Origin: Leptasterias polaris
Lineage: Eukaryota > Echinodermata > Asteroidea > Forcipulatida > Asteriidae
Assembly (NCBI GenBank): GCA_037783415.1
Contig: JAZGTN010000022.1
Span: forward strand, 5,802,001 to 5,866,000
DNA length: 64,000 bases
Direction of reading: 5' to 3'
This document shows, one piece after another, positions 547 to 40,351 of this stretch (position 1 is its first letter; every line of letters begins with the position of its first letter). The translations under genes were made by a program, and so were the position numbers. The notes under the pieces were generated by a model that was given only the letters and a program-made list of their open reading frames with translations, did no database searches and was not told where the DNA came from.

Positions 547-3500
547 CTTAAAATAAACAGAGACAATTTATTGAATTGATTTTTTTTACAATAATGATCT
601 TCTTGGTATAAATGAAACCCGGGCCCAATTTGATAGAGCTGCTTAAGCACAAAAGATGCTAAGCACAACAAAACTTTGCTTATCAGAATAAGGTTACCAG
701 CCAAACTACCATGTCACATGAACCATTTGTGACTGGTATCCTGCTCGTTTCTACTTAGCCGAGAAATGTTACGTAGTATTTTTTGCTTAAGCAGCTCTAT
801 AAAATTGGGCCAAGGGAATCCTGAAAACAGTTAAGCAATATTACCTTTTGATTGTAAAGTGAAGAGAAAACGATAAAGGAATTTGCAGTTCTAGATCTAG
901 GAGGAATACCTCCAGATGGATAAAAAACACGGCTACTTAGAAACTAAAAACTCAACTTGTGTGTTAACTTTGGTACAGAATGGAATCCCAACAAGGTTAC
1001 ACAGGAGTGAAATACCGGGAAAGTTTATAACCTAATCCCCAACATGTCGCTGCTTCTAAAAAAATACTAAGTTTACATAGCTTGTACCTTCCAATAGTTC
1101 CACCTGAACATGTGACAATGAAGAGTGATCCCAGTGGTTTGATGGTATCTGACTTGGTCACAATCATTCTGATACAAGGGGGGTAGTCTACCTTCAGCAC
1201 TGTGGGAGGAACAAGAATCATGTCACACACAAACTCAAAGACAAGTTTTATATGTTGAAGCTAAATGCAACGTGAAGGTTACAGACTTTTGCTTTAACTT
1301 TGATTTTTTTAAAGGTAGATTTACCTTGTTGGATTTGAGGCATTGCACGGTGAGGTATCAATGTATATTTGGTTTGCGGTAACATCATGTGCATATCTAC
1401 TTGCTGGGTAGATTTTGTTCTTTGAGAACTTGTCTTGCTATTTATTCTACTGCCGCGGAGTAGATTATTCGGAATTCGGGAGACTTCAGGAGACTTCACA
1501 GTTCTGAAAAGAACTGTCCTGCTTATTAACTACTACCTGGGCAGGAGGTAGGAAATCAGCTGGGACTACTACTTTCACTTAGTGGATTGAGGTGACTCCT
1601 CGTTATTAACATCACTGACGCGGAGTGAGTGAGTTCTTAATTGATTTACCTTCTATTCCAGTTGAATTATCAGAATCCAAAGCTATTTCTTCTAACTCAT
1701 CATCTGAGATATCACTATAGGATTCATAGGAGCTGGTGTTACTAAAGTCTGATCCAGATGACTCACTTTCAGACAGCTCTCCTTCTTCCAGTTCATCTGA
1801 ACTTAAGACAATTAACTCCTCCCCATCCTCAATAATCATTACATCTTCACCAATTTCGTAGGAGTTGGCCTCTGCTTCATTGCCTTTGCTCCTAATCTCA
1901 AGACTTGTTTCAGTTGGAGGTTCCACTTCCCCTGCTTCTGTTTCAGTATTGGGAACACCAACTCCATGGTTACTATCTGCTTCCTGTTCTGCTGATCCCT
2001 GACCTTTGGCCTGTTGACCTTTGTCTTCATCCGTCTTGACCTCTTCCCCGCTCTGTGAGTCGTCTTTAGCAGTTGATCCTTCAGAACTACCCCTTCCTGT
2101 TTCAGGACTGGTTTGGGCGTCTTGTCCATCTTTCTGATTTGCATTTCTAGTTGTCTTCTTAATTTTCTCATCCAGGGATCTCTGATCCTTTTTAGATTGA
2201 AGTTTACCGTCTTCTTCTCGTTCACCTCTCACTTGGCTCCTACTCTCAACCTCTTCATCAGCTCCTTCATCCATTCCAATCTCACCCTCAGATAACACCT
2301 CCATTACTCTGAGCTCATCCTGTCTCCCGTGGTAACTATGGTCATCCTCCTTGATCCTCCTTCCTTTATCTCCAGATTTCTTATCTTTCTTTCTTGAATG
2401 ACCCTCAAGTCGCTGTTTCCTTCTTCTTTCTCTAGACTGCTTTCTCCTGTTATAACCATGTCGACTCTTGACCACCTCAACTTCACCACCTTCTTCTTGA
2501 CTATGAGAACGATGCTTTTTCCTCAGTCTAACCTCACGTCGATCTCTTCTAGATTTGACACGCTCGCTTTCAGAAGCCCTTCTGTCGAGGTTCATCAACA
2601 ATCCTGTCCTTTGGCGTTTCTGTCCATGTCTAGTATCCTGTTCCATCTCAACAATTTCACAATCTTCATCATACACGCTGTCCTTCCTCTACAGCACCAC
2701 ACAAACAAAGAGGTAGAAGTAAAGGGGGAAAAAGAAAGAGATAATATTAGTTGACCTACCTGCAGGTAATGAGCGAGCAGGTAGGTTGATACGTATTCTG
2801 GGTGTTGAGCGAGCTTTGGGCGTATTAAGATCATGGCTTTGGGTGAAGCTTTGGGTGAAGGTAGTTGAATCATTGGCCCCAGGGTAAGCATCTTGCTTGG
2901 GTTCTAATGTTAGTCTTGACATGGTAGAAGTCAAAGAATCCTCCTGCATGGCACATGTAAAGAAGTACATTATACTCAGGTGGATTGCATGTGGTTTTTT
3001 TCCACATTTGGGATTTTTCTCCCACATCTTAAACTGGGACTTCTTCATCATCTTCTCTACACAGGTGTCTTTGGGCCTACAGGTCAAAGTGCAAGTCACT
3101 TTTGAGGGCTTCTTGGTTTTCTCTACCAGAAAGATGTAACACAGGGATGAGAGTCAAAGCTGGCAAAAAAGTCTGAAACTACATGTTGGATCCAAACTTT
3201 ATGACGTAGGGCCTACATGTATGTTGAAATGATGGCATTTCTACCTTTAGGTAACCCCTAGGGAGGGTTTGGAATTCAAAGGGCTTTTAGGAACAGTGTC
3301 CTAAGCACTAGTGAAGTAGATCAAAGGCAATTATTTCTTTTATTTGGAAAAATGAAAGGCTTTTTTTATTCACAGGGCTGACATAAAAAGTCTGAATTCA
3401 GACAAAAGTCTGAAAAATCTCATCCCTGGTAATAGTTATAATAGATCATGTTTTTTTCAAATCTAACATGAATAAAAAGAGTTCATAAGACATGATAGAT

Positions 3501-6500
3501 AGCTGGGATACCAAGCAAGGGTCAAATTGCTAACATCAAATCATAGGATGTCATGGCCGAGCGGTTTAGAGCATCGAATTCAAGTTCTGGTGGTTAAGTC
3601 ATCGGAGTGTGGGTTCGAATCCCGGTCAAGACACTTGTGTCTTTGAGCAAGATGCTCAACTATTATAGTTGCTTCTCTTCACCCAGGGGTATAAATGGGT
3701 ACCTGCAAAGGTAGAGGTTGATATTGTGTTTGAAAAAACCTTTGGAGCGCCACGGCAGTTCGGGGCTGTATACTCCCCAGGGAGCTGAGAAAGATTATAG
3801 GAATGTTATTGGCCCAATGACCAGGGCACTATTGTAAAGCACATTTATATGTTATTATAAAATGAGATATATATAAGAACTAGTTATTATCAATCATTCT
3901 GGAGTTGATTGTTGTTACGACACCAGTTCTTTCAGGGCCAGCACAATTCCCAATAATTGTTAATATTGTGTAACTACAGATCTAACTAGATTGCACTCCT
4001 ACGATGCAAAATATTATAATGAAATTGTGATTAGAAAAAAACCCAGCCCCATACCCACATGTACTGTGGGACTATAAACCAGTACAATAGTTTCTTACCC
4101 TTGCATCTCTCGTCTCCGCCACTCGTCTTTTCCCGGCCTTCTTCTCGAAACCTCTACCCCTACCCTTCCCAGAATTCCTTTGTCTTGCGGTTGCCTGAAA
4201 GGATGCTGGGAGTTCCACTTGAGAATGAAATTGGTAAGAGCAAGACCTTTCATCGTAGTAGTAGTAGGTTCCGGAGTTGGGATCATAATACAGTTTGTTT
4301 ACCTTAAAAAAATGAAAAAAAAATTAATCAGCAATTCATAAACCGATACCGAGTGTCACTACAGAGTTTGTTTGTTTGTTTGTTTGTTTTATTTCCATTC
4401 ATACATTCATACACTGATTGGTGAATCCAAACTAATAAATACATGGTAATACAACATGTCTTTTTTAGTTTTGAAAAAAAAATAATATTATATAATATAA
4501 TGTAGGGTGTCATGGCCGAGTGGTTAAGAGCATCGGATTCAAGTTCTGGTGGTTTAGTCATCGGGGTGTGGGTTCGAGTCCCGGTCATGACGCTCGTGTC
4601 CTTGAGCAAGACACTTTGCTATAATTGCTTCTCTTCACCCAGGGGTATAAATGGGTACCTGCAAGGGTAGAGGTTGATATTGTGTTTGAAAAAGCCTTCG
4701 GAGCGCCATCACGGCAGCCCGGGCTGTATACTCCCCAGGGAGCTGAGAAAGATTAAAGGAATGTTATTGGCCCAATGACCAGGGCACTAATGTAAAGCGC
4801 ATTGATACCGTTATTGTGAAATGCGCTATATAAGAACTAGTTATTATTATTATTATTATTATTATAACAACAGTATGAATGGAGCTGACATCCTGAGAAG
4901 GACTGGCCCTCTGAAGTAGGAGCACCGAGAACTGCCGCCAACAATTACATAACATCTAGAGTTAGTTACAACATGGAATAAGTACATACATGTAATAGTC
5001 CAGTGGAAGGGTCGTTTTTCATTCCACACTAAAAGCTTTTTCACTTATTTACACTTATTTACACTAGAAGAATAAAAGTATACTGAATAAGATTATCTCT
5101 GAAACTCATCAGCAACTTCTTCACTCACTGAAAACTGGAGGACATCCAAGTTTGTATGTGAAAGCACAACATTGAAACAGGTTCCTGTGTACATTACATA
5201 CCATTGCTTTCACTTGTGAAGGAAATAAAATTAGCAAACTTCATAAGACCCAACATTAGAATACACACCGAGTCTGTTCTCACCTGATCATAGTAATGGT
5301 GCCCAACATTAGAATACACACCGAGTCTGTTCTCACCTGATCATAGTAATGGTGCCCAACATTAGAATACACACCGAGTCTGTTCTCACCTGATCATAGT
5401 AATGGTGCCCAACATTAGAATACACACCGAGTCTGTTCTCACCTGATCATAGTAATGGTGCCCAACATTAGAATACACACCGAGTCTGTTCTCACCTGAT
5501 CATAGTAATGGTGCCCAACATTAGAATACACACCGAGTCTGTTCTCACCTGATCATAGTAATGGTGCCCAACATTAGAATACACACCGAGTCTGTTCTCA
5601 CCTGATCATAGTAATGGTGCCCAACATTAGAATACACACCGAGTCTGTTCTCACCTGATCATAGTAATGGTGCCCAACATTAGAATACACACCGAGTCTG
5701 TTCTCACCTGATCATAGTAATGGTGCCCAACATTAGAATACACACCGAGTCTGTTCTCACCTGATCATAGTAATGGTGCCCAACATTAGAATACACACCG
5801 AGTCTGTTCTCACCTGATCATAGTAATGGTGCCCAACATTAGAATACACACCGAGTCTGTTCTCACCTGATCATAGTAATGGTGCCCAACATTAGAATAC
5901 ACACCGAGTCTGTTCTCACCTGATCATAGTAATGGTGCCCAACATTAGAATACACACCGAGTCTGTTCTCACCTGATCATAGTAATGGTGCCCAACATTA
6001 GAATACACACCGAGTCTGTTCTCACCTGATCATAGTAATGGTGCCCAACATTAGAATACACACCGAGTCTGTTCTCACCTGATCATAGTAATGGTGCCCA
6101 ACATTAGAATACACACCGAGTCTGTTCTCACCTGATCATAGTAATGGTGCCCAACATTAGAATACACACCGAGTCTGTTCTCACCTGATCATAGTAATGG
6201 TGCCCAACATTAGAATACACACCGAGTCTGTTCTCACCTGATCATAGTAATGGTGCCCAACATTAGAATACACACCGAGTCTGTTCTCACCTGATCATAG
6301 TAATGGTGCCCAACATTAGAATACACACCGAGTCTGTTCTCACCTGATCATAGTAATGGTGCCCAACATTAGAATACACACCGAGTCTGTTCTCACCTGA
6401 TCATAGTAATGGTGCCCAACATTAGAATACACACCGAGTCTGTTCTCACCTGATCATAGTAATGGTGCCCAACATTAGAATACACACCGAGTCTGTTCTC

Positions 6501-9500
6501 ACCTGATCATAGTAATGGTGCCCAACATTAGAATACACACCGAGTCTGTTCTCACCTGATCATAGTAATGGTGCCCAACATTAGAATACACACCGAGTCT
6601 GTTCTCACCTGATCATAGTAATGGTGCCCAACATTAGAATACACACCGAGTCTGTTCTCACCTGATCATAGTAATGGTGCCCAACATTAGAATACACACC
6701 GAGTCTGTTCTCACCTGATCATAGTAATGGTGCCCAACATTAGAATACACACCGAGTCTGTTCTCACCTGATCATAGTAATGGTGCCCAACATTAGAATA
6801 CACACCGAGTCTGTTCTCACCTGATCATAGTAATGGTGCCCAACATTAGAATACACACCGAGTCTGTTCTCACCTGATCATAGTAATGGTGCCCAACATT
6901 AGAATACACACCGAGTCTGTTCTCACCTGATCATAGTAATGGTGCCCAACATTAGAATACACACCGAGTCTGTTCTCACCTGATCATAGTAATGGTGCCC
7001 AACATTAGAATACACACCGAGTCTGTTCTCACCTGATCATAGTAATGGTGCCCAACATTAGAATACACACCGAGTCTGTTCTCACCTGATCATAGTAATG
7101 GTGCCCAACATTAGAATACACACCGAGTCTGTTCTCACCTGATCATAGTAATGGTGCCCAACATTAGAATACACACCGAGTCTGTTCTCACCTGATCATA
7201 GTAATGGTGCCCAACATTAGAATACACACCGAGTCTGTTCTCACCTGATCATAGTAATGGTGCCCAACATTAGAATACACACCGAGTCTGTTCTCACCTG
7301 ATCATAGTAATGGTGCCCAACATTAGAATACACACCGAGTCTGTTCTCACCTGATCATAGTAATGGTGCCCAACATTAGAATACACACCGAGTCTGTTCT
7401 CACCTGATCATAGTAATGGTGCCCAACATTAGAATACACACCGAGTCTGTTCTCACCTGATCATAGTAATGGTGCCCAACATTAGAATACACACCGAGTC
7501 TGTTCTCACCTGATCATAGTAATGGGACCCAACATTAGAATACACACCGAGTCTGTTCTCACCTGATCATAGTAATGGTGCCCAACATTAGAATACACAC
7601 CGAGTCTGTTCTCACCTGATCATAGTAATGGTGCCCAACATTAGAATACACACCGAGTCTGTTCTCACCTGATCATAGTAATGGTGCCCAACATTAGAAT
7701 ACACACCGAGTCTGTTCTCACCTGATCATAGTAATGGGACCCAACATTAGAATACACACCGAGTCTGTTCTCACCTGATCATAGTAATGGTGCCCAACAT
7801 TAGAATACACACCGAGTCTGTTCTCACCTGATCATAGTAATGGTGCCCAACATTAGAATACACACCGAGTCTGTTCTCACCTGATCATAGTAATGGTGCC
7901 CAACATTAGAATACACACCGAGTCTGTTCTCACCTGATCATAGTAATGGTGCCCAACATTAGAATACACACCGAGTCTGTTCTCACCTGATCATAGTAAT
8001 GGTGCCCAACATTAGAATACACACCGAGTCTGTTCTCACCTGATCATAGTAATGGTGCCCAACATTAGAATACACACCGAGTCTGTTCTCACCTGATCAT
8101 AGTAATGGTGCCCAACATTAGAATACACACCGAGTCTGTTCTCACCTGATCATAGTAATGGTGCCCAACATTAGAATACACACCGAGTCTGTTCTCACCT
8201 GATCATAGTAATGGTGCCCAACATTAGAATACACACCGAGTCTGTTCTCACCTGATCATAGTAATGGTGCCCAACATTAGAATACACACCGAGTCTGTTC
8301 TCACCTGATCATAGTAATGGTGCCCAACATTAGAATACACACCGAGTCTGTTCTCACCTGATCATAGTAATGGTGCCCAACATTAGAATACACACCGAGT
8401 CTGTTCTCACCTGATCATAGTAATGGTGCCCAACATTAGAATACACACCGAGTCTGTTCTCACCTGATCATAGTAATGGTGCCCAACATTAGAATACACA
8501 CCGAGTCTGTTCTCACCTGATCATAGTAATGGTGCCCAACATTAGAATACACACCGAGTCTGTTCTCACCTGATCATAGTAATGGTGCCCAACATTAGAA
8601 TACACACCGAGTCTGTTCTCACCTGATCATAGTAATGGTGCCCAACATTAGAATACACACCGAGTCTGTTCTCACCTGATCATAGTAATGGTGCCCAACA
8701 TTAGAATACACACCGAGTCTGTTCTCACCTGATCATAGTAATGGTGCCCAACATTAGAATACACACCGAGTCTGTTCTCACCTGATCATAGTAATGGTGC
8801 CCAACATTAGAATACACACCGAGTCTGTTCTCACCTGATCATAGTAATGGTGCCCAACATTAGAATACACACCGAGTCTGTTCTCACCTGATCATAGTAA
8901 TGGTGCCCAACATTAGAATACACACCGAGTCTGTTCTCACCTGATCATAGTAATGGTGCCCAACATTAGAATACACACCGAGTCTGTTCTCACCTGATCA
9001 TAGTAATGGTGCCCAACATTAGAATACACACCGAGTCTGTTCTCACCTGATCATAGTAATGGTGCCCAACATTAGAATACACACCGAGTCTGTTCTCACC
9101 TGATCATAGTAATGGTGCCCAACATTAGAATACACACCGAGTCTGTTCTCACCTGATCATAGTAATGGTGCCCAACATTAGAATACACACCGAGTCTGTT
9201 CTCACCTGATCATAGTAATGGTGCCCAACATTAGAATACACACCGAGTCTGTTCTCACCTGATCATAGTAATGGTGCCCAACATTAGAATACACACCGAG
9301 TCTGTTCTCACCTGATCATAGTAATGGTGCCCAACATTAGAATACACACCGAGTCTGTTCTCACCTGATCATAGTAATGGTGCCCAACATTATACACACC
9401 GAGTCTGTTCTCACCAGGGCCCAATTTCACAGAGCTAAAGCAGACAATTTTGCTTAACTGCTTTCTGCTTAGCAAAAAAAAAGCAGGATACCAGTCACGG

Positions 9501-12500
9501 ATAGTACACGTGACATGGTATTTCGGCTGGTAACCTTACTCTGGTAAGCATAATTTTGTTGTGCTTAGCTACTTTTTTGTGCTTAAGCAGCTCTATGAAA
9601 TTGGGTCCTGATCGTAGTAATGGGCAGTCTAGTAATGGGACCCAACATTAGAATACACACAGAGTCTGTTCTCACCTGATCGTAGTAGTAGCCTGAGTTG
9701 CAATCATAGTACATGCCAGATGTTGTATCTAAGACAAAGCCACTCCTATTAACAGCAGCTTCAGCAGCAGCTTTCACACTATCAGCAACAGACTGAGATG
9801 ATGTACCCTAAACATCAAAACCAAGAACGAAATACCAGCATTAATCTCCGATAGGTCGCAAGACCATTAATAAATCTTTCACAAATCCTCCAAACTCCAT
9901 CCAGGGTTTGCCTGATTCGGTGTGTTTAGTAATGGATGACCATATCATCCATGCTAGATAAGAGAAGAGCATACCCATCTTATCAGAATCTATGCTGTTG
10001 ATTTTCCATATTCTGAATGTTTTTTATGTATAATGCCAAGGGGTCAGGCAGGCCTTTTATTGGCCATGGAGAGGCAATGGTCTCTGTTGTCCCTTGTCTT
10101 GGCCTTCGTGCCCCCTCAAAAAGTTTCCCATAGGCTGTAAGACTTTTCAATGGAAGTGCCCTTTGTAAAATGAAAATGGCCTTGCCCTCTCAAAGACAGG
10201 GATGAGAGTCAAAGCTGGCAAAAAAGTCTGAAACTACATGTTGGATCAAAATTTTAGGACGTAGGACCTACATGCATGTTGAAATGATGGCGTTTCGACC
10301 TTTTGGTAACCCCTAGGGAGAGTTTTGGAATTCAAAGGGCTTTAAGAAACAGTGTCCTAAGCAATAGTGAAGTAGATCAAAGGGCAATCTTTTTTTATAT
10401 GGAAAAATGAAAGGCTTTTTTTATTCACCAGGCTGACATAAAAAGTCTGAATCCCAGACAAAAGTCTGAAAAATCTCATCCCTGAAAAGATAAAATTCCA
10501 GGCTTGGTCAGGGTTTAAAGGCACTGTACACGTTTGGTAATTACTCAAAATATATATTAGCATAAAAACTTACTTGGTAACGAGCAACGGAGAGCTGTTG
10601 ATAGTATAAAACATTGTGAGAAACGACTCCCTCTGAAGTAACGTAGTTTTTGAGAAAGAGGTAATTTCTCACTAAAATAATAAAAGACTTCTGGCCAGAA
10701 GCCTTTTATTCCTATCTGAAAGCACACTAATTTGTACAACAAGGGTGTTTTTTCTTTCATCATTTTTTTGCAACTTCAATGACCAATTGAGCCCAAATTT
10801 TCACAGGCTTGTTATTTTATGCATATGTTGGGATACACCAAGTGAGAATACTGGTCTTTGACAATTACCAAACGTGTTCAGTGCCTTTAACTGGTTATAC
10901 CAACTGATACACAACATCAGAGGAACCAATAATAGGGACAATCAATGAATCTGAGACACATGGAATGTTAATATTCAATTACAATCATATTGTTATAAAT
11001 CAACGTTATGATGTGTAAAGCTGAATTGGTAAAATAAAACAACAGCTTTTATTAAAGATCTATCATTTGAAAAAAAGAAACTTCAACTAAAGTTGGGATG
11101 AAAATTCCTTGAATGAATTACATGAAAAATGTGAAGTTGCTTCAATATTCTGAAGTTCAGAATGTAAATGTACCATCCATGGATTTATATGATTTGGGAT
11201 TGAAAAAAAAAATTGACTAGAGCTGGATTTGAATCAATAACATCCGGATTAACGTGCCGGCGCTCTACCAACTGAGCTATGGACGGGTGGATTTAATATA
11301 TCTCCTAAACTTACAGCCGTTTGTTCTTCCATAACCCAATCTGATGGAACAACTCTATCTGCTGATGTTACGTCCGATGTAGTCATATCAATTATTGGGT
11401 CTATCTGACAACCTACATCCTTCACAGATTTCTTCAGAGTTCCGCGGACGTCAAGTAATTCTTGACTCAATGTTTCAACCTATAGAATGAGAAACATCAA
11501 ATTTAACGAATAAAACATGAAGTGGAGTGTCGTGGCCGAGTGGTTAAGAGCACCGAACTCAAGCTCTTGTGTTTCTGTTCAGCAGAGTGTGGGTTCGAGT
11601 CCCGGTCGTGACACTTGTGTCCCTGAGCAAGACACTTAACTATAATTGCTTCTCTCCACCCAGGGGTAAAATGGGTACCTGTGAGGGCAGAGATGGTTCT
11701 TGTGATTGATTTAGCTTAGTAGCGCATATATTGCAGCACAGGCTGTATACTCCCCAGGGAGCTGAGATGGTTTTAGGAATGAAATAAATGGCCCAGTGAC
11801 CAGGGGTAATAATGTTAAGAAGCGCTTTGAGACGCCCTTGGGTGTGATAAATCGCGATATAAATCCATATTATTATTATTATTATGATTTGTGATGATCA
11901 CAGAGAGAACTGGTTTAGAATCTGAAGTTTCACATTCTTGCAAAAAAATGTAACCCTTACAAAACTTGCAGGGTAATTTTTTAATAATTTGGGGTTGAAA
12001 AAAGATAAATTTATTAAGAGTGGGATTCGAACCAACAACCTCCGAATTAGCGTGCCAATGCTCTAGCAACTGAGTGACCTTGCCATAATGTTGGCGGTCT
12101 CCCATAAAGATACATGTAAGTTACGTGTGATAATTGGCATTTGGGTTTTGGGCATTTTAATTTTAATATCAGTCACCAATTCCAAATGAATATAGACCAG
12201 CTGCTGCTTTTAGGATTCATAGGGTGTACATTTTATTTGTGAATCATTGCCCTGGCTTGATGATTGAGGGGCGGAGATGACATCCCACTTTAGCACCATT
12301 GCTTGGTCAGTCTAAAGACCTTTCTATAGTGTTGATAAACAAATCGCGCTGGTTGGCATGGGCAGCCAAATGTTAGCAAAACATTCAATCCTGTTAACAG
12401 ATTTGACCAAATTCCACATTTCTGCAAACTTTCAATTACAAAAAAATTAATCCCATGATTGGTTGCTTTGTTTCAACAAATTCAACACTATTTTTAAACG

Positions 12501-18720: not shown

Positions 18721-18894
18721 CATCAATTTATGATTTTATCTTTTCTTTTAGGCGATCATCCCAAGACAATTTCCAACCGGTCCAAGGGAAACGTTTCAGT
18801 GACTGATGGTAATTTACTTTGATTGAATGGAAGTCGTATCACCACCGACATCTCAGCGTAATTTATAGTCATTACGCTGTTAACAATTTACAAA

Positions 18895-19195
18895 ATGAGT
18901 GATAGCTCCAATGAGATTCCGGATGACAGAAGTGACATCAAAGTCACTGAATCTAACAACAATTGTCCAGAAGCCAGAGCCGATAACCATGGGTGTATCG
19001 TCTCATGGGGCTGTGGAGAGTTTGGACAGCACGGCCAGGGTAATACCAACAACATCAACGCAGAGGCATCTTTCATTAGTAACTTTTATGAGAAAATCAA
19101 ATCAAGTCGAATGTCCGGAGAGGTTTCTTCAGGACAAGCTGTAAAAGAGTTGAAGGCATTTGCATGTGGAGCCAGCCATACTGTTATTGTGACAG
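18895..19195 (+). CDS. RCC1-repeat gene, first coding exon
   Basis: Starts AAAATGAGT (A at -3) with an upstream in-frame stop. It encodes a polar N-terminus (SDSSNEIPDDRSD), then GCIVSWGCGEFGQHGQGN and CGASHTVIVT. The donor is ACAG|GTAGGT, phase 1. An upstream 5' UTR exon may lie at about 18752-18808 (acceptor TTCTTTTAG, donor GATG|GTAATT), which is uncertain. Confidence 0.85.
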
Positions 19196-22100
19196 GTAGG
19201 TTTGTGTTGAAGGCAACGTTGATTTTTCGTATTGAACTGTACATTCCCAGTGGGCAAAATACGTTGAATTAACGTTGCCGACGTTGGTGTAACGTTGAAT
19301 GATGATTGTATTTGCAAATTGAATTAACGTTGAAGTATGACGTAGATACAACGTTAAACCCACTACGTTGTTTCAATGTCGGCATGTATACGTTGTTTTA
19401 ACGTCAAATTTCTACGTTGAAATAATGTTGAATAATGATTGAATTTGCAAATTGAAATAACGTTGAAATGCTGACGTAGATACAACGTTAAACTCACTAC
19501 GTTGTTTCAATGTCGGCATGTATACGTTGTTTTTACGTCAAATTTCTACATTGAAATAATGTTGAATAATCTGTAATTATGTTGGCTCAACATTGCCCCA
19601 ACGTTGGGCCAACGTACAGTTAATCTAAAACAATGTCTTCGAGTTGAACTTTCTTGTTATGTAGTTAATGCCCATTATAATTAATTCAAGTAATTAGTAT
19701 ATGCTTATTATACTTATAAGGTATATACATGTAAGATATGATACCGATAACTAAATACATTCTACACTATAACTACAACTTATACAGGCCTATACATCCT
19801 TCTCCACTGCATGTCTTGTATTTATATAGTCCAGGATCTACAGAATTTCCAGTCATGGTTATAACACCTTTTTAAAATAAAACTATTTAATTTTTAATTC
19901 ACATCTTGGAATGACAAATGTTTCTTTGTACTTTTGATGTACATATTTTCTTACAAACGAATTACAAAAAAAAGTACAAAAACTTGCCTGGGAAATTCCT
20001 AAATTCAACCAAAATTGTTTTGATATTGTCAGAAAAAGTCATACACTTCTAAGTCCCGCCCACAAATTTGCATAAGTTTCAACGTAGTCCCAACGTTGTC
20101 TCAACGTTGGCTCAATTTTAGCATCTTGTCAAAAGGCGCTCATACCCAAAAGGAATGTATAGCTTTTTGCTTGCCAAATGTTAATGCAACATAGGAATGA
20201 TATAAAATTAGGTTTGAGATGTCGCATCAATTACCTGAACTTAGTATAAAAACAACATTTCCATACACAAATAATTATCCCCCAAAATGTTAAATTTTAA
20301 CTTCTTGTCAACATGTTGTGCACGAAAAACTAGTAGAAATGTTAAGCTTTTTACTTGCCAAATATTAATGCAACACAGGAATTGTACAAAATTGAGTTTG
20401 AGATGTCGCATTATCTACCTGATTCGAACTCGGTGTAAAAAATGTTTTTCCATACAAAAAAACTAGAAACAATTACACCTTGTCAACATGCGCTCAAAAC
20501 CAAACTGTGAAGGGCAACTTAGAAGTATACATTTGGTTTGAGGTTTCAATCACCTGTCTGAACCTTGAGTGAAAAAACATTTAGATATTTTGTAATTGTT
20601 AAAAAAACAAATAGCAACAAAAATGTGAATATTTTAATGGTTGGGGCGACCTCAAGTGCAGTCGTGAACTAAAAGCCTAGAGAAAGCCAACTTTGATCGC
20701 ATTTTTAGGGCTGGCTTTAGGCCTACATGTATATCGATCCCATTGTAGAATAGGTGACCTTTTTCAACATCACCGTCCTTGCATTTCTCTATGGTCTGTG
20801 GTACTAATGGAAATATTACATTATTATTTGGACCACGAATAATGCCTTTTATTTTGCGGTGATTTCAATCAATGTTATCTGGGCTATTTCTTGGAATCCT
20901 CGCCCCTCATGTGTCTATATTTCTTGTGATCTTCTTGGTAATTTTCTTGATGGAAAAATGGTTAAAACGATGGCAATAGATGGCTGGTAATAATAATATT
21001 AGTATGTTACTGACTGATAGTCTGACCGGACGCAATTGTTCAATATTTTACCATAGAGGAAGGATTTTATAAATTTAAGTGTTCACCATAATTAAGTATG
21101 CTAAATTCAATGTAAGAGTGTTTGGTTTAGCTCAAATCTAGATAAAAAAAGCAACTGCAACTTTTATCCAACATTGTACATACGTCAAAAACGTTACATT
21201 GAAACAATGTTACCAATTATAATGATGGATCAACATTGATTTTAGGTTGTTATTATCGCAACGCAATTACAACCTTTATCCAACATTGTACATACTTCAA
21301 TATTGTTACGTTAAAAAAAACCTTACCAGACTGACGTTGGATCAACATCGATTTTAGGTTGTTATTATCGCGACGCAACAATAACCTTAATCCAACATTG
21401 CATTAACTTTTAAAAGTATACGTTTTGAAATGACGTTACCCAACTGACATTGGATCAAAATTGATTTAAGGTTGTTATTATCGCGACGCAATAACAACCT
21501 TTATCCAACATTGTTCATACGTAAAAATCATTACGTGGAAAAAACGTTCCCAGAATGACGTTGGATCAACATTGATTTTAGGTTATTATTATCGCGACGC
21601 AATAACAACCTTTATCCAACATTGCACGTAGGCCAAAAACGTTACATTGAAAAAACGTTACCAGAATGACGTTGGGTCAACATTGATTTTAGGTTGTTAT
21701 TATCGCGACGCAAAAACTACCTTTATCCAACATTGCACATAGGCCAAAAACGTTACATTGAAACAACGTTACCTGAAAGACGTTGGATCAACATTGATTT
21801 TAGGTTGTTATTATCGCGACGCAATAACAACCTTTATCCAACATTGTACATACGTCAAAATCGTTACGTGGAAAAAACGTTACCAGAATGATGTTGGATC
21901 AACATCGATTTTAGGTTGTTATTATCGCGACGCAATAACAACCTTTATCCAACATTGTTCATACGTCAAAAACGTTACATTGAAACAACGTTACCAGAAT
22001 GACGTTGGATCAACATTGATTTTAGGTTGTTATTATCGCGACGCAATAACAACCTTTATCCAACATTGCATCAACGTTAATTAGTATACGTTGAAACTAC

Positions 22101-27608: not shown

Positions 27609-30600
27609 ACTACAAGGATAATCAAATGACTATGGACAATAGGTTCTGAAAAGGACTATGGACAATAGGGCCTGAAAAGGACTATGAACTGTAGGGCCTG
27701 AAAAGGACTTTGAAACGTAGCATTTATACATGTTGAATATTTTTATGCACATGTGCCCATTTTAAATGCCTGATTTATCTTGTTCATAATGCCAAAGTTA
27801 TAGACAGTTGTCTTGTTAGGGAAGTACTGTTTTAAAAAAACAGCGATTTTATGGTTAAGCACAATTTATGCTATTATTGTGTTTAAAAAAATATATATAT
27901 ATATTGCTCTCATGCTCAGCTGTATATTGCCGTACGGTTGAGTTGATGCAATTGCTCGCTGCCAAAAAATTGCTTCCTGTGCAAGAACTGATCTACATTG
28001 TTCTTTAAATGCCAATATGCTATTTGTGAAATATTGATTGTATTATTGCTGGTATAATTTTATTTCTATACAATGGCAACCCCACTTAGTGGTACCATAG
28101 GTGTCATCCCCCCGTTCGATTCAACGCAAATAGAAGAATGGATTGAGTTGCTAGAGGCTTGGTATTATGCTAATAATGTTGCTACCGACGAAAAGAAGCG
28201 TTCAGTCTTGTTGACAAGCCTTGGGAGTAAGGGTTATCATACACTCAGAGCCCTTCTACAGCCCAATAAGCCGACAGAAAAGTCGTACGAGGATTGTATT
28301 GACCTATTGAAACGTCACTTTGCACCAAAGCCTAGTGAAACTGTATTACGCTATCGCTTCTATACACGCTCACAAAAGCCAAATGAAACTGTTGCAGAAT
28401 TTGTTGCTGGTCTTCGTCAGCTGAGTGAGCATTGTAGTTTCAAAGAACTGAATAATATGCTCAGAGATCGCCTAGTAGTTGGATGTCGAGAGCCAGCCAT
28501 TCAACGCAAACTACTCGGTGAGGCCAATTTGACGTTCGAGAGAGCACTGCAATTGGCAACAGCAATGGAAATGGCAAACAAAGGTGTGGAAAATATCAAG
28601 CAGATAAACAATCCAGCCGAGAGCACTACGGTCAACAAAATGCACCTTAGGAAGTCGAAGCCAAGCAAGCCATTTGCCAAGTCTAACGGTGACCAACTGC
28701 CCAGACATAAAAGTACTGAGGTCACTAGTAGTAGCAACATATATGACGCTAGCACCCGCAAATGTTGGCGTTGTGGTGGAGCACATGCCCCAGAGTTATG
28801 CCGATTCAAAACAGAGCAATGCCACAAGTGCCAACGTACAGGCCATACAAAAAGTCAGTGTGAGAAGGTTGCCGCCTTCAACAGCAAAAGAAAGTTTAAG
28901 CCTAAGGCTCATCACTTGCAAGAAGATGAAGACCAGGTGGAAGAAATGGAGTTTGCCGCTTTAAGTCACCTGGAGGGTTGCACTCTCAACAAGTTGATGA
29001 CGTCTAAGCCCTATCACTTAATGATGAAAATAAATGGTCAAGAAGTCAACATGGAGTTAGACACAGGAAGCCCCTGGACTATTATTTCATCAGAGACCTA
29101 TAGTAAGGTCGGGAAGTTGAGTGATCTGAAGCCAAGCAAAGCTGGACTTAAGACGTATACAGGAAACAAAGTTCCTATTATAGGTGAAGCCATGGTTTCC
29201 GTTCAGCATGCATCTCATTCAGCCAAACAGTTGCCCCTGTTCGTTGTAGATGAAGGAGTAAGTCTGATTGGGAGAGAGTGGATTGAGCAAATCCCACTGC
29301 CATTAACGGAGATACTACCTTGCCACGCCGTTAGTGACAACACTGACATTGACACAACAGCCGAGTTGAATAAAATACTCAAAGCACATGAGCAAGTCTT
29401 TGACGACAGCACCCTTGGACTTCTGCAAGGTTTCAAGGCCAAAGTGTACCCTGTGAAAGAAGAGCCCAGATTCTTCAAAGCCGCACCAGTTGCATATGCT
29501 ACTAGACAAAAAATCGATAAGTGCCTCGATGAAATGCTAGAGCAAGGGGTACTAGAAGCTGTTAAATTCTCTGACTATGCCTGCCCAATTGTGGTCGCCC
29601 CTAAGCCTAATGGACAGATTCGCATCTGCGGGAACTACAAGATAACTGCAAACAAAGTTCTTCGCCTAGAACAATATCCCCTTCCAACTTTGGAAGACAT
29701 GATGCAAGATCTTCAAGGTGGTCAGAAATATACAAAGATTGACTTGTCTCACGCCTATCACCAAATTGAGTTGGATGAAGAAGCCCGCAAATATACAACT
29801 ATCAATACTCATCGTGGACTGTACCAATATACAAGAGTACCATTTGGCCTCGCTTCAGCACCAGCCTTATTCCAACGAACAATTGAGTCATTGATAGCAG
29901 ACATCCCTATGTGCCGCCCATACTTAGATGATATAATAATCACAGGTCATACCGATGCAGAGCATTTGGAAAATGTGAAAACTGTGCTCCTGCGTTTGGA
30001 AGAACATGGGATGAGAATCAGGAAAGGAAAGTGTGAGTTCCTGAAAGAATCAGTGACATATCTTGGTCATCGCATTGACGCAGAAGGAATACGACCAGTT
30101 GGAGACAAAGTAGAAGCTGCCACCACATAGCCCGATCCATCCATGGGAGTTTCCTGAGGGTCCGTGGCAACGGTTGCACATCGACTACGCCTTAGTTGAA
30201 GGTCACGAAGTGCTGATAGTGGTGGATGCATACAGCAAATGGATAGATGCAATAAAAGTCCACTCTGCCTCATCTCAGTCTACCGTCAAGGTGATGCGGA
30301 GATTGTTTGCATCCCATGGTATTCCAGAAACCATTGCAAGTGATAATGGTACACCATTCGTATCAGAGGAGTTCTTTTGTTTTCTCACGAACAACGGAGT
30401 GGAACACATTCAAACTGCTCCAAAGCACCCTTCCAGTAATGGCTTAGCTGAAAGAGCTGTCCAGACAGTTAAGCATGGAATCCGAAAAATAAAAGGAGGA
30501 GACCTGGAGTCGAGATTGCAGAAGTTTCTACTTCAGTATAGAGTAACCCCACAAGCAAGTACAGGAAAGAGTCCAAGTGAACTCCTGTATAAATGACTAC

Positions 30601-33600
30601 TACGTACCAAACTAGACATGATACGCCCCAACTTGGCCAAGAAAGTAAAACGACAACAAAAACACATGAAAGATCAAGCAGATAGAGGAACTAAACCGAG
30701 AACCCTCAAGACAGGAGATAGTGTCTTGGTAAAGAACTTCGGAGCAGGTCCTACCTGGCTGCGTGGTCATGTTAGAAGTGTCATCAGCTCTAGTCTTTTT
30801 GAGATACAGCTGGATGATGGTCGATCAGTGAGACGCCACATCGATCACATGAGATATGGGGAGCACAACCCAACTCCAACAAACGTGCCTGAAGTCATTG
30901 TTCCGGACTACCAAGAAGAAACCCTACAACTGCCCATGTGTACAACTGATCCAAGCCAAATCACTGTACAACAAGAAGTTGATTCTGCTGATCCTACTGA
31001 ACCAGATCAATCAAATCAGCAGTTGCACTCTCCTTCACCAAGAGTTTCTGCTAGAGCCAAATGTCCCCCAGAACACTTGAAAGATTACATTCTGTATAAG
31101 TAATTACATTTATACTCACATAACGATCTGCAGTATTACTAATTTTCTTGATCATACTTTTTGCCGAATTTGTTTTCAAAGTTAAAGCAAAATTCATGAT
31201 TGCATATCTCCAGTTTATGGTTTATGAAAAATTGTTGGTTGTTGATAAGTTTTTCATGTTGCGTTTAAAAAAAAAAAAAAAAAAAGTTGCCCTGATGTTA
31301 TCTAAAAAGGGAGGAATGTAGTGTATTCACTTTAACACGTCTGCCACTTTAAGAGTTACGCATGCGCATTCCAGTTGTGTTATAAGAAGTTGCTTTAATG
31401 ATTAGAACCACAATGGAGTAAGTTCCACATTCAGTGCTCCAGAAGTTTGGACTAATAAATATGTTAAAACATACATCTGCATCCGGTTGAGTTACTTAGG
31501 GATAGGACATAACAAGTTGTTATCCAAAACAAGAGTAAATGTGTTGTAGAACCTTTCAGAAAACAATTTCCCACAAAGTCTGTCTTCGTTACTAAATGAT
31601 TTTGAGTAAAAACTTAGTTTTATATTGCGTTGTTGTACCTTTCCCATTTGTTAAATTACGGTCATGGTACTTTTGATTTTATACTTTCCTTTTTAACCTT
31701 AGGCACAACAGGTTATAAAGAGTACTTTGCATGGGTCATGTGCGTGGTTTGCACACTTCTGTATAGATCTAGTAACAATATCAAATTCTTCAACATTAAT
31801 TGCTCTTTTGTTTGCCTTAACACATCCACAGATGGCCTTCCAGAATGTAAACCCAGTTTAACCTGTAATTGACACTTGAAAGATGTCATAAAGCTGTTGT
31901 AACAAAAGTAATTTTATGGGGGATGCTTTACCATAGAGAAATCTCTCTTATCTCTTTCAGTGCCTGCTTTTTAAAACGTTTTGAACCTAAAATGCCCAGC
32001 TTTTTGAGCTTTTTCGAAATTCAGTGTTAGAAAAAAAGTCTTTCTCACCAAACAAAAGTGTCTTGCTGATTTGTGTTGCCTTGGTACATCCCAAAGTCAA
32101 TATTATTTCTTGAGTGATACTGCCCTTTCGTGATAATATGTAAATTATTGGACGGTACGACTGATGACACTTTGTGAGTACAAAAAATAGATTGTACATG
32201 TATAAAGGCGTTTTCGGATCACACAAAAAAGATTGTACATGTACGACCTTGGCACTGAAAGTGTTCAAGATAATGGTAGCATTCTAATGTTGAGCTGTTG
32301 TATGGCTTTTTCTTTTCACAGCCAATGCATCACATGAAAGATAAATTGTTCATTGTGTTCATTGTGCTACTTATTCCTATGAAAGTAGTTCTTTCACTGT
32401 AGGCTGTAAGGTCCACTGGTGGTTGTGTTTTATGTTTATTTCATTTGCAAATATATTAATACTGAATTAACAGTTAGTTGTACACAGATGCTGTTACTGA
32501 CAATCTAATTTTCAAAAGGAAGTATTTGAAATCTAACTGTTAAACTTTGTGCCCCCTTTATCACCCTGAGCATCCTCTCTGTTTCAAATCATGTCCTATA
32601 ATTATGACAACATGATTTATAACTGATTTAACCAAACTGACCAGTAGCTTTCTACAAACAAAACAAAAGGATGATGCTTTTTGCTCAAGAATTTAAGCAT
32701 GTGTTGTGATGAAAATGTTGTGGTATTGGTGAGGATTAGAATGAAATGGATTTTTCAAGGATATAATACATTTGTAGACTGTGCAAGTCTCGTGCATATC
32801 AAAAACAAGAAAACAACTCAAGCGAAGACTATATTTTCTATGAAATAAAATATAAAAAAATTTCGACAAAATTCTTAAAAAACAAAAGTACCCATTGACT
32901 ATTTTGGTTTAATACAACACATTTTAAATCAACATTGACACAAAATTAAAACTTTGGAAGAGCATGCTTATTTAAAAAAAAAAAATTGTCAATCACAACC
33001 AAATTTGTAAGACCATTACGTAGGTCTAGAGATAAATTAAACGTTGATTGTGCAATATTGTACAAGTGACCGGAAACAAGGGTCAAGTCTTATCTATGAG
33101 TTTCGGGTTCTCTTTGTTGATTTGCAAAAGAATTTACTGTCATATAGTTCATTGCTAAGTTACACTTTCCCAACATAATGACAACATTTTTGTAGCCATA
33201 AACTATGTTAAACTGAATTATTAATTTTTGAAAAACCAGAATCTCGTACATGTCAAATACGGATCAGACCGAATTGGTTCCAGAAGTTTGGATACGCATG
33301 AGACTCACACAGTCTATTGAAATCTATTTCTTTTGATAGATTCAAATAACAGGTATTGATAAGTGCTGGCATTGTTCCTTTTGTGTAATAACAACAATAG
33401 ATTAACTGTTCACTAATAAGTCAAATTGTTCTTAAAGGGAAGGTATACGTTTGGTAATCACTCTTAAAATTAATGGCAATAAAAATCTACTTGGTTAGAA
33501 GTACAGCAGCTTTCGATAGTATAAAGCATTTGGAGAATCATTTCACTTCAAAGTAATTAATGTGGTTATGTATGTAAAAAGATATCAGTTTTTATGCCCC

Positions 33601-36251: not shown

Positions 36252-38480
36252 GTAAGTCCATTGTCTTGACAACCTCGCTACCGCGTGTGGTCGCCATGTT
36301 GACTGGCAATGATCGGTCGCACGAGGGCGCTGTTTTATCACTGTGATTTTAAATTAACTTGTTAACTGAAAAAACCTTTCCCCACAACTCTATTCAATTT
36401 AAAACTTTGATTGTGTCAGCCCTGATAAACTAAAACAAAAACCCTTTTTGTCATTGATCCGTCCAGTTTGTCTGACATAAACAGTGTATTGTTTTATCTC
36501 CAATTGCATTTAATGCATTTCATGAAGGCAGGTTTTTGTGATATTTATTCATCACAGTTTACCCATAATGAAGAGTAAATACATTCATAAAATGAAAAGA
36601 CTTAGAAATAAAAGGTTCACATTTGTGATTTTTATTTCGTTATGGATCTCTCCTTCTTTGCCTTCTAACTTACTTGAAAATAAATGAACTTACTATCAGG
36701 AATAAAAGACAAAGCCCTGTTGTGCACAAACTTCTAGTTTTTCAGTTTGTATTTTGATAGTGTGTAAGGTTGGTACAATGTAGTTGCATTTTTCGACCTC
36801 TACTCAGTTTTTATGATTTTGTTCTTTTGTGCAATCAAACCCCAGAAAAGATCATTTGCAATCTCAAAAACCTGATGTACCACATTTTGTTAAGATGGAG
36901 AAAATAACTCAATTGTGATTCAGTTCGCATTTGGTAATCCTACAGGGGGTACTTTCACCAGGTTCTACTTTGTACGGTCGTGTGTATCATTTTAAACGTA
37001 TTCGTATTTTTAATGTCTGTCTGTTTTGTAACTGTTTTTTTTTTTACCCTGCGAAATAATAAATGAAACAAGTTGAGTCTCCATGGATTGGTATTCACAC
37101 AGTATTGGTATTCACACAGCGTCTCCTGTACCATGTACATATGTATACATGTAGCCTGAACTTGTAATTACGAATAATTGTCATTTCCAGGTGCATTATG
37201 TGCACATGATTAATGATAAGATTATATCATAATTGACACCGTGCTGTATATTTCCCCCACCAGCAGAACACTAGAACGTTAGGATTTATAATCCTTCTTA
37301 ATCTTGTCCCAGACAATGAATAGTTTATAATGTAATCCCCCTCTTAAATACCATACTGTTGTCTGCGGAATGAGTGTTGCAGCTAACTTCATCCATGAGT
37401 TCATAATAGTCTGAAGTGTTTCTATCAGAAAATATACTCTCTTTCTACTCAAACCAAAAAACTACTTACATAACACTATCAATAATGTTTGAATGAGCTA
37501 TGAACCAAAGTCTGTCAACATTTCACCTTTTAAATAGTTAATTACATGTTATACAAACTAACACTGATAGGTTTGTTACTCTTGACTTGAAAACAGAGAT
37601 TGGATAATAGAGACATATGTCTCATGGTGATTCTCCCCAGCACCAATTTGAACAAACTGAACCTCCAGATAAAAAACCCCATATATTTTCATGATATCAA
37701 TCATCCAAACTTCACATCTCTGTGAATATTTTGATTCTAGAAGGTTTTTCTGCCCGGCTTCATTCTTTATTATTCATCTGCTAGAAACTTCCCTTGTGAG
37801 TACATATATTTGATAGAGTTGTTGTAAAATAGTCATGAGTTTTATTAGTTTATGGTACATGATCAGGTGGGAGTCTGTACCTGACTGAACACACTAATCC
37901 TATGATCCTTCATAGTCCTGGCAAAGAACAAAACAATTACAGGTTGTTGCTCCCTTTATATATATACACCCACCTCTATTATTCAAAGAGAAATATCTAC
38001 TCATTCTATGCCATCGGTTTAAACAATAAAATTGCATACATGATTGTGTGAACAATTCGTGAACAATTCGGTCACAGTTCGTACTGGCGATGTTTCATGT
38101 GAATGAAAGAAATCTGATGGAAAGTTCAATTTAGGAAACCACATGCGATTCTTAGTTTAACGGAGCTGTTGCTTTAAATGGATGATTTTATTTGTTAGAC
38201 TATCACTGGCTTCTTTTGATAGAGGCCGAGCATTATGAGTTGTTTGTATAATTGGTCTATTGTTTAATTATCGGCCATTGTTCCTAGGGTAGTTCAACGG
38301 GACCATTCTACTCAAAATAAGTCAATATTTTATCTGGAACATAAAAACATGTACACACAAACGTTAGCAATGTAGAACCACTTTTTGTGTGTATAGAAAC
38401 TAAACTGTGGAGGGGGCGGTCGCATTCAATACTTCCTTTCAACTCTTCCACAGACCCCAAGCTCTCATTTAACAATACGA
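36252..38480. other. Exon-free stretch after the last RCC1-gene exon
   Basis: AT-rich, probably intron. No exon, RNA gene or dispersed repeat recognised. Confidence 0.45.
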
Positions 38481-39610: not shown

Positions 39611-40339
39611 ACTGCAGTCTTTGAATACTTCCTGACCCATACAAGAATGAGTCTAAGAGAGCCAGAACGGAACTTTTATTATGACATTTGGACTGCAGTC
39701 TTTGAATACTTCCTGACCCATACAAGAATGAGTCTAAGAGAGCCAGAACGGAACTTTTATTATGACATTTGGACTGCAGTCTTTGAATACTTCCTGACCC
39801 ATACAAGAATGAGTCTAAGAGAGCCAGAACGGAACTTTTATTATGACATTTGGACTGCAGTCTTTGAATACTTCCTGACCCATACAAGAATGAGTCTAAG
39901 AGAGCCAGAACGGAACTTTTATTATGACATTTGGACTGCAGTCTTTGAATACTTCCTGACCCATACAAGAATGAGTCTAAGAGAGCCAGAACGGAACTTT
40001 TATTATGACATTTGGACTGCAGTCTTTGAATACTTCCTGACCCATACAAGAATGAGTCTAAGAGAGCCAGAACGGAACTTTTATTATGACATTTGGACTG
40101 CAGTCTTTGAATACTTCCTGACCCATACAAGAATGAGTCTAAGAGAGCCAGAACGGAACTTTTATTATGACATTTGGACTGCAGTCTTTGAATACTTCCT
40201 GACCCATACAAGAATGAGTCTAAGAGAGCCAGAACGGAACTTTTATTATGACATTTGGACTGCAGTCTTTGAATACTTCCTGACCCATACAAGAATGAGT
40301 CTAAGAGAGCCAGAACGGAACTTTTATTATGACATTTGG
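39611..40339. repeat. 81-bp minisatellite, nine units, open on both strands
   Basis: Nine head-to-tail units from ACTGCAGTCTTTGAATACTT to ATGACATTTGG, apparently identical. The period is 27 codons and no unit has a stop in one plus and one minus frame, so a 257-codon plus frame and a 246-codon minus frame run through it. The plus peptide unit (TAVFEYFLTHTRMSLREPER then NFYYDIW) looks protein-like but matches no family I recognise. Confidence 0.95.
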
Positions 40340-40351
40340 ATCGACATGTAA

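What the first reader, a model, noticed from the sequence alone, without database searches (positions are those of the whole stretch)
5249..9415. Seventy-eight tandem copies of an exon end plus 5' splice site inside the AGGF1 intron
Seen directly: on the gene's strand each 53-bp unit contains ATTACTATGATCAG followed by GTGAGAACAG. The real OCRE exon ends TACTACTACGATCAG with the same donor GTGAGAACAG, and the rest of the unit equals the first bases of intron 4. The intron therefore starts with the true donor and continues with 78 equal or near-equal donor sites in a row. The unit also has TTCTAATG, a branch-point-like motif, before its CAG. Inference: the array arose by duplication across the exon-intron boundary. 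It could act as a U1 snRNP sink, slow or retain the intron, or allow alternative OCRE ends. AGGF1 is itself linked to splicing through its OCRE domain, so a feedback role is conceivable.
Basis: partly seen in the sequence, partly recalled or inferred. Interest (0 to 1): 0.88.

Follow-up and report, generated by a model that had tools for sequence, protein, structure and literature searches.

The report
Splice-site minisatellite in sea-star AGGF1
In a sea star's AGGF1 gene, a short stretch covering the end of one exon and the start of the next intron has been copied about eighty times in a row, giving the intron dozens of spare "cut here" signals; a human gene (ABCA7) has a very similar repeat, so it is a striking example of a known kind of thing.

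Summary
On the minus strand the AGGF1 intron between coding exons 4 and 5 (9675-4303, 5,373 bp) holds 80 copies of GTGAGAACAG: the true donor at 9675, one CTG|GTGAGA copy beside a MITE-like element, and 78 CAG|GTGAGA units 53 bp apart, 75 of 78 identical. The unit matches the exon-4/intron boundary in 49 of 53 positions (12 exon, 41 intron bases). In a BLAST of the 630-Mb genome the 40 reported matches are the array (39) and that boundary (1). OCRE exons occur once and the gene reads as intact; the nearest protein found is from Asterias rubens.

Best reading: an ordinary, homogenised minisatellite born by tandem duplication across an exon-intron border. The human ABCA7 intron-18 VNTR has the same anatomy and measured effects: single-unit retention and length-dependent skipping of the next exon. 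Here array-donor use would bring a premature stop, and skipping exon 5 (204 nt, in frame) would remove about half of OCRE. A U1 sink or feedback role is unsupported: other donor-motif arrays do not exceed a reversed-motif control, and donor burial is not unusual. No RNA data were available.

The parts
9676..9807 (-). AGGF1 coding exon 4 (132 nt, phase 0), first half of the OCRE domain; ends TACTACTACGATCAG
   Evidence: splice borders and reading frame; OCRE PF17780 E 1e-17 on the joined exons; matches the Asterias protein
9666..9678 (-). True 5' splice site CAG|GTGAGAACAG
   Evidence: U1 duplex -11.1 kcal/mol
9635..9687 (-). Parental 53-bp segment: last 12 nt of exon 4 + first 41 nt of the intron; 49 of 53 identical to the array unit
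   Evidence: the only reported genome match of the unit outside the array
9608..9634 (-). Partial second copy of the exon end (CCATTACTACGATCAG) after the first intronic segment, cut off by the MITE
   Evidence: sequence
9415..9610 (-). MITE-like element (ends CAGGACCC...GGGCCCTG; 188 bp between the matched inner ends) separating the true donor from the array; its exact ends are ambiguous because CAGG/TGGT overlap the repeat unit
   Evidence: 4165 first-look candidates, 40 scored; the 39 others are 85-88% identical to it
5249..9415 (-). 53-bp minisatellite array: 78 CAG|GTGAGA units plus one CTG|GTGAGA unit at the MITE edge
4303..9675 (-). AGGF1 intron between coding exons 4 and 5 (5,373 bp; the TRF array span is 77.6% of it)
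4099..4302 (-). AGGF1 coding exon 5 (204 nt, phase 0 to 0), second half of the OCRE domain; skipping it keeps the frame into exon 6 or exon 7

Best explanation
A minisatellite born by a tandem duplication over an existing exon-intron border and later expanded and homogenised by unequal exchange or slippage. The duplicated segment is the last 12 nt of exon 4 plus the first 41 nt of the intron, so each regular unit carries a complete copy of the host exon's 5' splice site. Shown: anatomy, homology, one locus reported, gene reads intact. Inferred: the intron is older than the array. Inferred mechanism, by analogy with the ABCA7 intron-18 VNTR: the true donor, nearest to exon 4's acceptor, is used most; array donors are used rarely and give an exon 4 of at least 393 nt with a premature stop (expected NMD); and longer arrays may raise skipping of exon 5, which would remove residues 162-229, in frame, and so about half of OCRE. 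No selected function is needed to explain the array.
For: Unit equals the boundary in 49 of 53 nt, and the 40 reported genome matches are the array (39) and that boundary (1). The last unit runs out at GGGTCTTAT into unique intron, and the exon-proximal copy has GGGTCCCAT at the same place, as expected if 41 nt of intron were duplicated. Residues 2-840 of the 864 of the Asterias protein are covered by tblastn pieces in this locus; OCRE, FHA and G-patch are each recognised by Pfam; OCRE exons occur at this locus only among 13 scored candidates. The 3 sea-star proteins aligned (one Asterias, two from one Acanthaster contig) read YYDQ|VNKLYYDP across the junction with no array sequence. One of 7 homologues, P0005, has a 37-residue in-frame insert at this junction, beginning V-C-I-I as an unspliced GTATGT.. 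intron would, which suggests the intron position is old. Long homogeneous minisatellites are not rare here: a 61-bp x 32 array at 99% and an 81-bp x 9 array at 100% lie nearby. ABCA7 precedent: VNTR starting at the exon-18 donor, 12-427 units, single-unit retention, length-dependent exon-19 skipping.
Against: No RNA: every splicing statement is prediction. The exonic part of the homology is only 11 of 12 nt. P0005 is an unnamed predicted protein whose DNA I did not see. The MITE shows no clear target-site duplication here or in the copies listed (read by eye), so the order of events at the 5' edge is unclear. The species is not identified beyond sea star. In ABCA7, single-unit retention did not depend on VNTR length. 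The last 24 residues of the Asterias protein were not found in this locus.
Confidence: 0.75

Rival explanations
1. The array is a selected U1 snRNP sink or intron-retention switch that feeds AGGF1 back on itself.
For: 78 exact intronic copies of a good donor (U1 duplex -11.1 kcal/mol; the eight other AGGF1 donors modelled range from -5.3 to -11.8) in a gene with an OCRE domain.
Against: Triple CAGGTGAG arrays elsewhere in the genome are not in excess: 171 overlapping matches of which 76 are this array, leaving 95, against 117 for the reversed motif. RNA structure z is 0.76. The same unit homogeneity is seen in neighbouring minisatellites without donors.
Confidence: 0.06
2. Recursive (ratchet) splicing: each unit ends ATCAG|GTGAGA, so splicing into any unit rebuilds exactly the original exon-intron boundary and the intron can be removed in scarless steps.
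For: AG|GT juxtaposition in 78 units; TTCTAAT branch-like motif in each; the rebuilt boundary equals the true one over the donor by sequence.
Against: The 20 nt before the unit's CAG hold 11 pyrimidines; the gene's eight modelled acceptors hold 11-17, so the unit is at the weak end though not outside. The AG|GT pair is an automatic consequence of copying an exon that ends in CAG.
Confidence: 0.06
3. No effect at all: the first donor always wins by exon definition and the array is removed with the intron.
For: The next donor is 261 nt further on and would make exon 4 at least 393 nt long; the three sea-star proteins aligned show the normal junction.
Against: In ABCA7 a comparable array does change splicing.
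Confidence: 0.35
4. Copy number is partly an assembly artefact.
For: 75 of 78 units are identical, so the copy count is hard to assemble; raw reads are not available.
Against: The array sits inside a 9.75-Mb contig with distinct edge units and two internal variant units at 7774 and 7562; 4.2 kb is within long-read length, if long reads were used (not known).
Confidence: 0.07

Closest known systems
ABCA7 intron-18 VNTR (human; De Roeck et al. 2018, PMC5954066; passages and one section seen)
   Same: Minisatellite directly behind an exon whose first GT is that exon's 5' splice site; 12-427 units; use of the next donor retains one unit and shifts the frame; the downstream in-frame exon is skipped more as the array grows.
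   Different: Unit 25 bp starting at GT, against 53 bp here with 12 exon nt included; no MITE in the passages I read; human polymorphism and RNA are known, here neither is.
IFI6 / 6-16 minisatellite with multiple splice donor sites (Turri et al. 1995; only the title and citing passages seen)
   Same: Minisatellite that supplies repeated splice donor sites; downstream repeat units are used as donors (passage).
   Different: Recalled: 12-bp units; here 53 bp, out of frame, with a stop before the array donors.
Internal tandem repeats at exon-intron boundaries of human segmental-duplication genes (De Grassi and Ciccarelli 2009, PMC2812944; outline, passages and discussion seen)
   Same: Minisatellite expansion at exon-intron borders changes gene structure.
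   Different: On average 30-bp units repeated 4 times, in recent paralogues; here about 80 copies in a gene found once.
Intron gain by tandem genomic duplication (PMC4974935, PMC3443670; search listing only)
   Same: Tandem duplication of a segment that carries splice-site sequence (recalled).
   Different: Here the intron probably existed already (P0005); nothing suggests a new intron.

Membership tests
Minisatellite (VNTR-type) array | Head-to-tail units of roughly 10-100 bp, many copies | tested here: met
   53 bp x 78.7, 99%
Minisatellite (VNTR-type) array | Copy number varies between individuals | not testable with these tools
   one assembly only; one locus reported
Intronic VNTR that includes the host exon's 5' splice site (ABCA7/IFI6 kind) | Repeat begins at or spans the exon-intron border | tested here: met
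   parental segment -12..+41 of exon 4/intron, 49 of 53 identical; the MITE now separates it from the rest
Intronic VNTR that includes the host exon's 5' splice site (ABCA7/IFI6 kind) | Units carry usable donor sequence | tested here: met
   79 of 80 sites CAG|GTGAGA, U1 duplex equal to the true donor; actual use not testable
Intronic VNTR that includes the host exon's 5' splice site (ABCA7/IFI6 kind) | Repeat changes splicing | not testable with these tools
   no RNA reads available
Recursive (ratchet) splice site | Pyrimidine tract + AG|GT | tested here: inconclusive
   AG|GT present; pyrimidines 11 of 20, at the low end of the gene's own acceptors
AGGF1 | OCRE, FHA and G-patch domains in order | tested here: met
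   OCRE E 1e-17 and FHA E 7.4e-12, G-patch E 4.1e-14 in L071, beyond the window start; order by tblastn

The most novel reading that the evidence does not exclude
The array works as a length-tuned switch on the OCRE domain: dozens of equal donors, each able to rebuild the original boundary, slow or divert removal of this one intron so that the share of AGGF1 mRNA lacking exon 5 (about half of OCRE) or carrying a premature stop is set by copy number and by U1 supply, giving feedback on a splicing-linked protein.
Probability: 0.06. Interest if true: 0.75.

Novelty: new member of a known kind. Interest (0 to 1): 0.4.

Why it matters
It is a clean natural construct for an old question: when dozens of identical 5' splice sites stand in a row, how does the spliceosome choose? 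It also shows how a minisatellite can be founded on an exon-intron border, and it has the anatomy of the disease-linked ABCA7 VNTR in a distant animal and a different gene. The prediction that array length sets skipping of the next exon could be tested with RNA and long reads.

Tried and rejected
Rejected: (1) a hairpin that hides array donors. GGGCACC...GGTG looked suggestive, and the median array donor is 2.8 to 5.8 times less accessible than the true donor at three window settings (the last unit is an exception and is more open than the true donor at two of the three), but 23% of 300 controls with up to four random changes in the boundary unit are as closed as the consensus, and the TC variant is as closed as the CA consensus. 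(2) Donor arrays as a selected class in the genome: counts do not exceed the reversed-motif control; the two other arrays inspected, on C26, look like ordinary minisatellites, and one has its donor motif apparently antisense to an EGF-repeat gene (by eye). (3) Intron gain: the intron probably predates the array. (4) New OCRE ends: the stop comes before the array donors.

The last AGGF1-plus-repeat paper search was too broad: 10 of 3,976 papers listed, none of the 10 with AGGF1 in it. A U1-decoy paper search was seen as a listing only (15 of 28) and gave nothing used here; so was a recursive-splicing search. My 724-aa query joined exons 6 and 7, which the later frame check shows to be alternatives, so it is not a natural protein.
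Full report
Observation. The minus strand of the window carries AGGF1. TRF gives one array, 5249-9415, period 53, 78.7 copies, 99%. Counting exact words, GTGAGAACAG occurs 80 times on the minus strand and not on the plus strand; 79 of the 80 read CAG|GTGAGA and one, next to a MITE-like element, CTG|GTGAGA. The first of the 80 is the true donor of exon 4 at 9675. Seventy-eight units from 9364 down to 5283 are spaced by exactly 53 bp; 75 of these 78 equal the consensus over -12..+41, two carry TC for CA at +36/+37 and the last carries TCTT.

Gene model. Coding exons 13341-13336, 12919-12740, 11479-11315, 9807-9676 and 4302-4099 join in phase 0; the protein has an OCRE domain (residues 138-188, E 1e-17) and the ORF 372-713 an FHA domain (E 7.4e-12). 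The best relative among 25 proteins is an Asterias rubens AGGF1-like protein, 72% identical, then Acanthaster (only the 7,995 candidates sharing most words were scored), so the window is from a sea star (Asterias: class Asteroidea, family Asteriidae). tblastn of that protein against the start of the window plus 20 kb beyond it covers its residues 2-840 of 864 piece by piece, and the piece in L071 is a G-patch domain (E 4.1e-14). A 125-aa OCRE-exon query finds this locus only: 2 matches, the two exons, from 13 scored candidates. The gene therefore reads as intact and was found once. Exons 6 (2943-2760) and 7 (2688-1650) both run from phase 0 to phase 1: either one joined to exons 5 and 8 stays open, both together give 59 stops, so they look mutually exclusive; the Acanthaster row P0010 carries the exon-6 type and P0008 and P0009 the exon-7 type (by eye).

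Origin. In a BLAST of the whole 630-Mb assembly with two units, the 40 reported matches are all on contig 22: 39 in the array and one, 93% over 58 nt, at the exon-4/intron border (the tool calls its counts lower bounds). The border and the unit agree in 49 of 53 positions: 11 of the last 12 exon bases and 38 of the first 41 intron bases. Upstream of those 12 bases the exon is not similar. The intron's own copy reads ..TTGGGTCCCAT and the last unit runs out as ..TTGGGTCTTATGAAG into unique intron. The simplest history is a tandem duplication of -12..+41, then amplification; TC at +36/+37, shared by the border copy, two internal units and the last unit, is probably ancestral, and CA spread by homogenisation (inference). 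Between the border copy and the array lie a partial second copy of the exon end and one copy of a large MITE-like family (4,165 first-look candidates, 40 scored; the 39 others 85-88% identical). Its termini (CAGG......CTGGT) overlap the unit's CAGGT, so the exact insertion point is ambiguous, and I see no target-site duplication (by eye).

The intron is probably older than the array. Of the 7 relatives, one unnamed predicted protein (P0005) carries 37 extra residues at the exon-4/5 junction, starting V-C-I-I, as a read-through of an intron beginning GTATGT would (inference); the other six have no insert there. The three sea-star proteins aligned (one Asterias, two from one Acanthaster contig) read YYDQ|VNKLYYDP straight through.

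Is it special in this genome? In the DNA held (window plus 31 of 74 fetched loci, 112,802 bases besides the window) TRF gives 41 rows of period 20 or more, some of them overlapping; only this array has a donor-like 8-mer in its unit. Two other nearby arrays are as homogeneous: 81 bp x 9 at 100% in the window and 61 bp x 32 at 99% some 13-15 kb beyond the window's start. A genome scan for three CAGGTGAG at 28-58 bp spacing gives 13 forward and 158 reverse overlapping matches, 76 of them this array by the listed coordinates; the reversed-motif control gives 23 and 94. Outside AGGF1 that is 95 against 117: no excess. These are overlapping matches, not arrays; about 100 of the 171 were listed, and CAGGTAAG could not be counted. 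Two listed arrays on contig 26 were inspected: 26 bp x 66 (pyrimidine tract, CAG|GTGAGG, apparently antisense to an EGF-repeat gene) and 41 bp x 27.

What it would do. The donor pairs with the U1 5' end at -11.1 kcal/mol, as good in the regular unit as at the true site (the MITE-adjacent CTG copy -8.1); the eight other modelled AGGF1 donors range from -5.3 to -11.8. A message spliced from an array donor has an exon 4 of at least 393 nt and meets a stop in the 75th codon counted from the start of exon 4, before the first array donor (checked for four donors; it follows for the rest), so NMD or truncation is expected. The 53-bp unit is out of frame. Exon 5 (204 nt) can be skipped in frame: exon 4 joined to exon 6 or 7 and exon 8 has no stop. 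That would remove residues 162-229, 27 of the 51 residues matched by OCRE. Acceptors inside the array are possible but weak: AG with a TTCTAAT branch-like motif and 11 of 20 pyrimidines, against 11-17 at the gene's eight modelled acceptors. RNA folding gives no sign of a designed structure: the four-unit energy is weaker than the mean of 200 shuffled units (z 0.76), and the lower accessibility of array donors is matched by 23% of 300 random mutants.

Known relatives. ABCA7 intron 18 (PMC5954066; passages and one section read) holds a 25-bp VNTR whose first GT is the exon-18 donor, with 12 to 427 units. Use of a donor one unit on retains 25 bp out of frame, at about 2% in the tissues measured as I read the section; skipping of in-frame exon 19 was 3.2 times higher in the longest than in the shortest allele combination, while single-unit retention did not follow length. 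IFI6/6-16 is known by title for a minisatellite providing multiple splice donors (Turri 1995, citing passages only; not held). De Grassi and Ciccarelli (PMC2812944; outline, passages and discussion read) report minisatellite expansions at exon-intron borders in human duplicated genes. The AGGF1 array is thus a new, long and very clean member of a known kind; copying 12 exon bases, so that each unit rebuilds the whole boundary, is its distinctive trait among those whose details I read. I found no report of it, but my searches for this were few.

Verdict. Observation confirmed, origin inference supported, functional inference not supported but untested. Interest 0.4: a good test object with a direct human parallel, not a new kind of system.

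Noticed in passing
window 2760-2943 and 1650-2688: AGGF1 exons 6 and 7 look mutually exclusive: both go from phase 0 to 1, either is open, both together give 59 stops; sea-star relatives carry one or the other (by eye).
   Followed up: partly
window 39611-40340: Minisatellite of nine 81-bp units, 100% identical and open in frame on both strands; no Pfam match for the two-unit translation. Origin not explained.
   Followed up: partly
L072 5171-7127: 61-bp x 32 minisatellite at 99% identity on the same contig, beyond the last AGGF1 exon found.
   Followed up: no
L069 4557-6274: 26-bp x 66 array (93%) with many minus-strand units reading CTCCCCTTCCCAG|GTGAGG, a row of ratchet-like splice sites, apparently antisense to an EGF-repeat gene (by eye).
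   Followed up: partly
window 620-810: A second copy of the same MITE-like family, in the AGGF1 intron before the FHA exon.
   Followed up: partly
window 28058-31103: Long plus-strand ORFs that look like gag-pol of a Gypsy-type retroelement (by eye).
   Followed up: no
window 18862-19272 and 35909-36346: ORFs that look like RCC1-repeat exons of a neighbouring plus-strand gene (by eye).
   Followed up: no
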